64,000 nt of DNA from Methanohalophilus halophilus (GTDB lineage Archaea; Halobacteriota; Methanosarcinia; Methanosarcinales; Methanosarcinaceae), in contig NZ_CP017921.1 of the NCBI RefSeq assembly GCF_001889405.1, positions 634,057 through 698,056 on the forward strand. Direction: 5' to 3'. The notes beneath the pieces are model-generated. The model saw nothing but the letters and a program-made list of their open reading frames with translations, made no database searches and was not told where the DNA came from. The stretch's first letter is position 1; the number at the start of each line of letters is the position of its first letter. The position numbers and the translations under genes were made by a program. Of the stretch, positions 5,462 through 6,970 are shown piece by piece.

Positions 5462-5591
5462 GGGATTAACATGAAACGTGAAAGAATTTATAGGTTATCT
5501 TTTGGAAGTGGATTGCCCCTGAAGGAAAGCGTATAATTGCTTCTAATATTGTTGTGGAAGTGTATAATTCCGATTAAAAAGTATACTATAC

Positions 5592-5650
5592 AGTATATTA
5601 CTGAGTAGTATATTACTGAGTAGTATATTACTGAGTAGTATATTACTGAG
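5592..5650. repeat. Four tandem copies of a 15-bp AT-rich repeat
   Basis: The unit TAGTATATTACTGAG is repeated four times without a mismatch (the first copy lacks its first T) at 5592-5605, 5606-5620, 5621-5635 and 5636-5650. It lies 130-190 bases upstream of the glmU start within a 304-base gap, beside AT-rich sequence that resembles archaeal TATA elements. No ORF or second repeat type lies in the gap. Confidence 0.95.
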
Positions 5651-5765
5651 TAATAATAAAGGGATGAGAACAGTCACTTCAATAAGAGAAAAGGTAATTA
5701 ACACACATTTACCTGCTAATCAAATGCATCAACTATCTGACAGAATGTGTAGTTGACCCAAAAAT

Positions 5766-6185
5766 TCAATCCGTTTTTTCAAGATAAAGCGCTATGTAAT
5801 GTGCAAATTTCTCCAGATCATCCAGATGGTTTTGCAGGTAAAAATATACCCTTTCCATATCAATATGGGCGTACATATGAACAAGCACATTTCTAAAACC
5901 TGCTGCAGGGGAGATTTTCCTGGAAAAATCCTGGGGCAAAATTCCATTAGCACCCAGAGTCGTAAAAATTTCCTTATAGGATTCTGGTTTCTTCAATGAG
6001 TGTCGGGAAATTATCATCTCTCCGATATCTATCATGCATTCAAGAGAAACTTCAAGGTACCTTTCCACTGCTCCTCTAAGGGTATGGTCCTGATTGATGT
6101 CATCGAGACTGTAATCCTGATAGCCTTTGAGGATTTCAATATATTCCTTTAATAATTCCAGTTTAGAATATATTGACTCATCCAT
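5766..6185 (-). CDS. hepT: HepT-like ribonuclease toxin (DUF86)
   Basis: 139 residues, all-helical. The HEPN active-site motif Rx4HxY is complete: R98, H103 and Y105 in RNVLVHMY. HepT toxins are metal-independent RNases. The cognate MntA nucleotidyltransferase silences them by adding AMP to the Tyr of this motif. The gene follows mntA; reading mntA through its UAG gives an 8-base overlap with the hepT start at 6185, the usual arrangement for the pair. If mntA stops at UAG, 85 untranslated bases separate them instead. Confidence 0.9.
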   Translation of the reverse strand: MDESIYSKLELLKEYIEILKGYQDYSLDDINQDHTLRGAVERYLEVSLECMIDIGEMIISRHSLKKPESYKEIFTTLGANGILPQDFSRKISPAAGFRNVLVHMYAHIDMERVYFYLQNHLDDLEKFAHYIALYLEKTD

Positions 6186-6606
6186 TGCCCTCTGCCCCTG
6201 TCATCTGCTTTACGGCTTCTCTCATATGGCGCTGTCTGTAAAATTTTTCATCCAGATATCTGGACATGACCTAGGTTTCGAAGGGTATTCGACTGACCTC
6301 ATCAGATTTCAAAACGTATCCATCTTTAATAATATTAAAATTCAAAAGCAGAGGTGCCTGATTCATAATGGTCAGGTCAATCTTGTCAGAACCCAACAAT
6401 CCAACAATATCATCAATAACATGCAACTCCAGCCTAAATATGTCCTGCTTTGAAAGACTTTTATCCAGCAATACTCCTATATCTACATCGCTCAGCTTGT
6501 TGTCGTCACCTCTTGCAACAGAGCCAAATATGTAGGCAAGTACCACTTCATCCAGACTACTGAAATACTTAGAAAGTTTTGCTTGCGCTGATTCCAAGTC
6601 GTACAT
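6178..6606 (-). CDS. mntA: MntA-like nucleotidyltransferase antitoxin, with in-frame UAG at codon 112
   Basis: The minimal nucleotidyltransferase motif GSx10DxD is intact: G28, S29, D40 and D42, with a third Asp at 78 in KIDLTIM. The frame meets UAG at 6273-6271 after FET, then continues as VMSRYLDEKFYRQR and stops at TGA 6180-6178. Ordinary MntA proteins are about 135-145 residues long and end in a similar YLD-containing helix; read through, this one has 142. Methanosarcinaceae insert pyrrolysine at UAG, so full-length MntA could carry Pyl at 112. The shorter 111-residue product keeps the catalytic motif but loses the last helix. Which form is made cannot be told from sequence. Confidence 0.8.
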
Positions 6607-6739
6607 GATATATCAAAAGATGTCGATTGGTTTATAAAAAATGTTCGTACCTGTGTCTACAAAGCCATTTCAGAGAATCAAATCATGATTGATATTTCCG
6701 GTATATTGTTCACACTTTAGATACAAATCTCATTATAAT

Positions 6740-6970
6740 TCACAGTAAACCAAGCTCTTTCTTGACCTCGTATTCACTATAGGCCCGCCCCATTTTGAGA
6801 TCTTCTAAAGCTTCTTCGATACCCTGAATAGTTTCATCGCTTAGTTCATCCTCATCGATTGCCATTCTGGTCAATCTATCAATCACAGAATTATAGGACT
6901 CTTCAGGGTATTCCTTTAAGATATTAAGTTTTTCTTTTGTTTGTGGATCCACACTTATATTCATTGCCAT
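6740..6970 (-). CDS. Ribbon-helix-helix antitoxin-like protein (DUF7557 type)
   Basis: 76 residues. The N-terminus (MAMNISVDPQTKEKLNILK, then SYNSVIDRLTRMA) fits a short beta strand and two helices of a CopG/VapB-like DNA-binding fold. The acidic C-terminal half (ELSDETIQGIEEALEDLK, YSEYEVKKELGL) is the toxin-wrapping tail seen in such antitoxins. No toxin gene adjoins it: the 133 bases to mntA hold no ORF, and upstream lies the permease. It may act as a solitary regulator. Confidence 0.75.
   Translation of the reverse strand: MAMNISVDPQTKEKLNILKEYPEESYNSVIDRLTRMAIDEDELSDETIQGIEEALEDLKMGRAYSEYEVKKELGLL

What the first reader, a model, noticed from the sequence alone, without database searches (positions are those of the whole stretch)
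6178..6606. MntA antitoxin gene interrupted by an in-frame UAG
The frame continues past UAG 6273-6271 with VMSRYLDEKFYRQR, the expected end of MntA, and finishes at a TGA that overlaps the hepT start by 8 bases as in ordinary pairs. In a pyrrolysine-using methanogen the antitoxin would then need Pyl to reach full length. Toxin restraint could in that case depend on the Pyl supply, which is tied to methylamine metabolism. The loss of 31 residues at a true stop is the alternative. The readthrough sequence and overlap are seen; the regulatory link is inference.
Basis: partly seen in the sequence, partly recalled or inferred. Interest (0 to 1): 0.8.

Follow-up and report, generated by a model that had tools for sequence, protein, structure and literature searches.

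The report
Antitoxin gene probably encoding pyrrolysine
In the salt-loving methanogen Methanohalophilus halophilus the antitoxin gene of an ordinary toxin-antitoxin pair contains a UAG codon that this genome seems to read as the rare amino acid pyrrolysine rather than as stop, most likely through a chance mutation and not as a special switch.

Summary
mntA (6606..6178, -) has one in-frame UAG (6273-6271, codon 112), reads on 30 codons to a TGA, and overlaps hepT by 8 bases. The genome has the exact length published for Methanohalophilus halophilus Z-7982 and carries a complete pylTSBCD cluster. In 338 kb sampled, none of about 294 plausible genes ends at UAG: of seven UAG-ended ORFs, five run on in frame (mntA, mtmB, an acyl-CoA synthetase, two others) and two lie antisense to longer frames. 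All close MntA relatives continue through the site with a sense codon (Tyr TAT in the nearest), and the tail diverges like the head (pN/pS 0.35 each). UAG 112 falls in the alpha4 helix that in Shewanella MntA plugs the HepT active site. Readthrough as pyrrolysine is therefore the best explanation. The proposed regulatory link is not supported: no other MntA found has UAG here, the site is variable, there is no RNA structure, and UAG turns up in other genes too. In siblings mntA is deleted while hepT survives with an altered catalytic motif; the window's HepT keeps the canonical motif, which hints that its antitoxin still works. Pyrrolysine in MntA itself was not measured.

The parts
6178..6606 (-). 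mntA, 142 codons with UAG read as pyrrolysine (111 aa if UAG stops)
6271..6273 (-). in-frame UAG, codon 112; aligned codon is TAT (Tyr) in the closest relative
6481..6525 (-). GSX10DXD nucleotidyltransferase motif of MntA (residues 28-42), intact
   Evidence: read; motif defined in PMC7641770
6250..6297 (-). residues 104-119, equivalent to the alpha4 helix (98-113) of Shewanella MntA that inserts into the HepT active site; UAG lies inside it
   Evidence: mapping by phmmer alignment
5766..6185 (-). hepT, HEPN RNase toxin, 139 aa
5871..5894 (-). RX4HXY active-site motif of HepT (RNVLVHMY, residues 98-105), canonical here, RGELLHMY in sibling solo HepTs
6631..6638 (-). TATA-box-like TTTATAAA 24 nt upstream of the mntA ATG, suggesting a separate, perhaps leaderless, mntA-hepT transcript
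   Evidence: sequence inspection; inference

Best explanation
This is an ordinary type VII mntA-hepT operon in Methanohalophilus halophilus whose antitoxin codon 112 changed to UAG by a single base change, probably from a Tyr codon (TAT/TAC). The cell reads that UAG as pyrrolysine with its PylTSBCD machinery, as it apparently does for UAG codons generally, so full-length 142-residue MntA with its alpha4 helix is made, AMPylates HepT and restrains it. Shown here: the pyl genes, near-absence of UAG as a terminator, conservation of the reading frame past UAG, a canonical HepT motif. Inferred: actual Pyl insertion in MntA, antitoxin function, near-neutrality of the change. Some 111-residue product from competition with the release factor is likely but of unknown amount.
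For: Complete pylT-S-B-C-D at G000:C1:420819-425139. Two of three mtmB copies have the expected UAG. Stop usage in 338 kb: TAA 140, TGA 149, TAG 7 although TAG is 17.8% of stop triplets; five of the seven run on in frame and two are antisense to longer frames; siblings G003 and G007 (M. mahii by exact length) 0 of 115 and 0 of 85. An acyl-CoA synthetase has UAG inside its Pfam domain where 94-95% identical siblings have CAA/CAG. MntA relatives continue past the site, 66% identity to the nearest; codon 112 is TAT there; K, R, G, S, M, E, D, T, A elsewhere. pN/pS against the nearest relative: head 0.353, tail 0.348. Window HepT keeps RNVLVHMY, whereas three sibling solo HepTs without mntA share RGELLHMY. 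Pyl shown by mass spectrometry in MttB of M. portucalensis, same genus (PMC4928046).
Against: No peptide evidence for MntA. The UAG occurs in one species only. The nearest relative is 66% identical, so the pN/pS match mostly reports time before the UAG arose. Sibling lineages show mntA being lost, so decay is a real tendency at this locus. In M. acetivorans an introduced UAG is read through only 20-30% (PMC2933860), so the full-length fraction may be small. The citrate synthase amber of M. mahii cited as a Pyl precedent may itself be decay: M. halophilus has only a C-terminal remnant of that gene.
Confidence: 0.74

Rival explanations
1. The UAG is a nonsense mutation: MntA is cut to 111 residues, is non-functional, and the operon is starting to decay as in sibling species; HepT is already tolerated.
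For: Siblings G001, G003 and G005 keep hepT without mntA; G005 has a deleted mntA remnant; G007 lacks both. Solo hepT frames diverge with pN/pS about 0.23-0.30, so hepT can persist without MntA. UAG is the commonest one-step nonsense outcome in this gene (26 of 57).
Against: The genome has tRNA-Pyl and almost no UAG terminators; mntA has no other lesion in 142 codons; the window HepT, unlike the solo ones, keeps the canonical catalytic motif.
Confidence: 0.14
2. The 111-residue form is itself a working antitoxin, alone or beside the 142-residue form, comparable to the short (about 108 aa) MNT of Legionella pneumophila that lacks alpha4 yet AMPylates its toxin.
For: Legionella MNT precedent (PMC11586414); the catalytic domain and GSX10DXD lie before the UAG; UAG decoding competes with termination in Pyl archaea.
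Against: Close relatives all keep the tail; in Shewanella deletion of alpha4 reduces AMPylation and neutralisation (PMC7641770); the Legionella complex relies on a different, tetrameric HEPN and another docking loop.
Confidence: 0.08
3. The UAG is a selected regulatory switch: low pyrrolysine, as during growth without methylamines, gives truncated MntA and frees HepT.
For: UAG sits inside the helix that blocks the toxin; M. halophilus grows on methanol as well as methylamines; in Acetohalobium, a bacterium, Pyl use depends on trimethylamine (review PMC8211752).
Against: UAG at this codon is in none of the other MntA homologues found in the order or in a sample of the phylum (one other hit with a UAG, G127, is a frameshifted pseudogene); the site is variable; no structure after UAG (z 0.05); other UAG genes would be hit too; termination at UAG stops ribosomes 85 nt before the overlapping hepT start and could lower toxin synthesis as well.
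Confidence: 0.04

Closest known systems
Type VII HepT-MntA (HEPN-MNT) toxin-antitoxin, Shewanella oneidensis (PMC7641770; PDB 5yep)
   Same: mntA-hepT order, GSX10DXD, RX4HXY, alpha4 region; phmmer match E 1e-4
   Different: UAG in place of a sense codon inside alpha4 (Lys106 in Shewanella by the alignment)
tRNA-His guanylyltransferase Thg1 of Methanosarcina acetivorans, pyrrolysine by neutral evolution (Heinemann 2009, as cited in PMC3639795 and PMC2933860)
   Same: one species only, UAG in a non-methyltransferase gene, otherwise intact frame
   Different: here the gene is an antitoxin and the genome shows almost no UAG terminators
Methylamine methyltransferases MtmB, MtbB, MttB
   Same: UAG decoded as Pyl by the same machinery
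   Different: their UAG is conserved and catalytic; in MntA it is neither conserved nor near the catalytic motif
Methanomethylophilus alvus and other archaea with few amber stops and many in-frame ambers (PMC11467909)
   Same: rare UAG terminators go with in-frame UAG in various genes
   Different: another order; counts there are genome-wide, here from a 338 kb sample
Reported archaeal code in which all TAG codons are pyrrolysine (recalled 2025 report; not found in the library)
   Same: would cover this case as one instance
   Different: could not be checked; whether MntA is in its lists is unknown

Membership tests
Type VII HepT-MntA toxin-antitoxin | MntA nucleotidyltransferase with GSX10DXD | tested here: met
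   NF047752 78 bits over cut-off 60; motif G28-D42 read
Type VII HepT-MntA toxin-antitoxin | HepT HEPN RNase with RX4HXY | tested here: met
   NF047751 126 bits over cut-off 60; RNVLVHMY
Type VII HepT-MntA toxin-antitoxin | mntA upstream of and overlapping hepT | tested here: met
   8-base overlap if UAG is read; similar overlap or near-abutment in most relatives
Type VII HepT-MntA toxin-antitoxin | alpha4 helix of MntA present (Shewanella and Aphanizomenon type) | tested here: inconclusive
   encoded, but complete only if UAG is read
Type VII HepT-MntA toxin-antitoxin | MntA AMPylates and neutralises HepT | not testable with these tools
   needs bench work
Pyrrolysine-containing protein | pylT, pylS, pylBCD in the genome | tested here: met
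Pyrrolysine-containing protein | coding conservation continues past the UAG | tested here: met
Pyrrolysine-containing protein | UAG seldom or never a terminator in the genome | tested here: met
   none of about 294 plausible genes in 338 kb
Pyrrolysine-containing protein | Pyl detected at the site by mass spectrometry | not testable with these tools
   only MttB of M. portucalensis published
Selected, functional Pyl site (MtmB type) or regulatory switch | UAG conserved among orthologues | tested here: not met
   no other homologue found has UAG at this codon
Selected, functional Pyl site (MtmB type) or regulatory switch | stimulatory RNA structure after UAG | tested here: not met
   z-score 0.05; such structure is not required for Pyl insertion in general

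The most novel reading that the evidence does not exclude
Restraint of the HepT toxin depends on the pyrrolysine supply, so that loss or shortage of the Pyl system is punished by the toxin: an addiction module that stabilises the expanded genetic code, with or without dedicated selection on this UAG.
Probability: 0.08. Interest if true: 0.85.

Novelty: new member of a known kind. Interest (0 to 1): 0.42.

Why it matters
It adds a probable pyrrolysine protein outside methylamine metabolism, placed in the toxin-binding helix of an antitoxin, in a genus where UAG seems to have become a sense codon. It warns that annotation under table 11 truncates such genes, and it offers a testable case of whether a chance UAG in an antitoxin can make a cell dependent on its expanded code. 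No earlier report of pyrrolysine in a toxin-antitoxin protein was seen among the titles and abstracts returned by the paper search, but that search covers open-licence papers only.

Tried and rejected
PF21360 as a pylC marker gave no hit; the pyl ORFs were read directly instead. An essentiality argument from a primase-like UAG gene (L068) was dropped: no homologue in 19 other genomes, so it is not the housekeeping PriL. The citrate synthase argument was dropped: only a remnant in this genome. The G127 mntA with a UAG is a frameshifted pseudogene, not a parallel. A first alignment script left minus-strand loci unturned and was redone; L106 in the HepT alignment is out of frame and was ignored. 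Genome contigs gave no confirmed relative; plasmids only distant ones. AlphaFold on the single sequence was poor (pLDDT 42) and was not used for fold search. Rfam gave nothing at the pyl locus. Split MntA by re-initiation at ATG 114 just after the UAG was considered: not tested, no clear ribosome-binding site seen.

Full report
Observation. The minus strand encodes mntA from ATG 6606 to TGA 6180-6178 with one in-frame UAG at 6273-6271, codon 112. hepT starts at 6185, giving the stated 8-base overlap. Both genes exceed the NCBIfam equivalog cut-offs for MntA and HepT of type VII systems.

Organism. The window lies in a single-contig genome of 2,022,959 bp, exactly the length published for Methanohalophilus halophilus DSM 3094 (Z-7982), sequenced at about 4,724x and able to grow on tri-, di- and monomethylamine and methanol (PMC5313614). 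Genome G007 has exactly the length of M. mahii (PMC3017947). The names are inferred from these lengths.

Pyrrolysine machinery. PylS scores 369 bits against a cut-off of 178. tRNA-Pyl(CUA) lies just upstream, and ORFs that read as pylB, pylC and pylD follow. Two of three mtmB copies hold the expected UAG. Pyl was detected in MttB of M. portucalensis by others (PMC4928046).

UAG usage. In 338 kb (window, pyl locus and 13 spaced stretches of 20 kb) a simple ORF caller gave 296 ORFs of 100 aa or more: TGA 149, TAA 140, TAG 7, while TAG is 17.8% of stop triplets. Of the seven, mtmB, a long AMP-binding enzyme (its Pfam domain spans the UAG), an ATPase, a primase-like protein and mntA run on in frame; the other two lie antisense to longer frames. 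Siblings G003 and G007 gave 0 of 115 and 0 of 85. The synthetase UAG replaces CAA/CAG of siblings that are 94-95% identical, though the copy in G005 has a TAA elsewhere. So UAG is, as far as sampled, not a terminator in this genus. This is a sample, and the ORF caller is crude.

Relatives of MntA. In 60 related genomes, 186 of the order, and 393 of the phylum, no other homologue has UAG at this codon; G127 has a UAG elsewhere in a frameshifted gene. Close relatives continue through the site to a similar end. The aligned residue is Tyr (TAT) in the nearest and K, R, G, S, M, E, D, T or A in others. Against the nearest relative pN/pS is 0.353 before and 0.348 after the UAG; this mostly reflects the time before the UAG arose. 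The nearest relative, in G012, is an orphan whose hepT is reduced to a start-proximal remnant.

Locus history. At this locus G003 and G001 carry hepT with no mntA, G005 carries hepT next to a deleted mntA remnant, and G007 has neither. The three solo HepTs share RGELLHMY at the active site, while the window copy and nearly all other HepTs aligned keep RNxLVHMY or close to it. The solo hepT frames diverge with pN/pS about 0.23-0.30. In G005 codon 15 of hepT is UAG where the others have TAT. A HepT with the canonical motif beside an mntA whose only lesion is a UAG suggests that the antitoxin still works; this is correlation.

Where the residue sits. By phmmer alignment residue 112 matches Lys106 of Shewanella MntA, within alpha4 (98-113), which inserts into the HepT RX4H site and whose deletion reduces AMPylation and neutralisation (PMC7641770). 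Stopping at UAG would remove half of that helix and everything after. Legionella MNT lacks alpha4 and still works, with a different binding mode (PMC11586414), so a short form cannot be excluded as functional.

Mechanism. Best reading: a one-base change of codon 112, tolerated because UAG is read as Pyl; full-length MntA is made and restrains HepT. The change looks near-neutral, like Pyl in Thg1 of M. acetivorans (PMC3639795, PMC2933860). There is no RNA structure after the UAG. Readthrough in M. acetivorans reporters was 20-30%, so some 111-residue product is expected.

Regulatory claim. A switch would predict a conserved UAG or a special context; neither is seen. Other UAG genes would be affected by the same shortage, and termination at UAG would stop ribosomes 85 nt before the overlapping hepT start. 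Pyl dependence of toxin restraint remains possible as a by-product and is the most interesting open reading.

Noticed in passing
L104, L105, L103 (G001, G003, G005), locus of window 5766-6606: Solo hepT without mntA in three sibling species, all with active-site RGELLHMY in place of RNVLVHMY; G005 also has a deleted mntA remnant upstream.
   Followed up: partly
L103, hepT codon 15 (G005): UAG in the toxin gene itself where siblings have TAT (Tyr); otherwise intact 139-codon frame.
   Followed up: partly
L076:4418-6031 (-): Acyl-CoA synthetase-like gene with UAG inside its AMP-binding domain; CAA/CAG in near-identical siblings; the G005 copy has a TAA at codon 305.
   Followed up: yes
L073:7104-8894 (+): AAA ATPase (OLD/AbiEii-like) gene with UAG at codon 453 and 144 further codons.
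   Followed up: no
L068:655-2112 (+): Primase-large-subunit-like gene with UAG at codon 426; no homologue in 19 other genomes, perhaps from a mobile element.
   Followed up: partly
L101 (G000:C1:203334-203480): Only a C-terminal remnant of citrate synthase in M. halophilus; the amber citrate synthase of M. mahii may be decay rather than Pyl use.
   Followed up: partly
L007 (G012) after mntA: Orphan mntA; hepT reduced to a start-proximal remnant.
   Followed up: partly
window 5590-5660: Tandem copies of a TACTCAGTAATATAC-like unit after hepT, also near this place in sibling genomes.
   Followed up: no
window 6740-6970 (-): 76-aa DUF7557 protein, antitoxin-like in size, directly upstream of mntA and absent at this locus in the siblings examined (G001, G003, G007).
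   Followed up: no
L079 (G127): mntA-hepT pair broken by frameshifts and stops, a clear example of real decay for comparison.
   Followed up: partly
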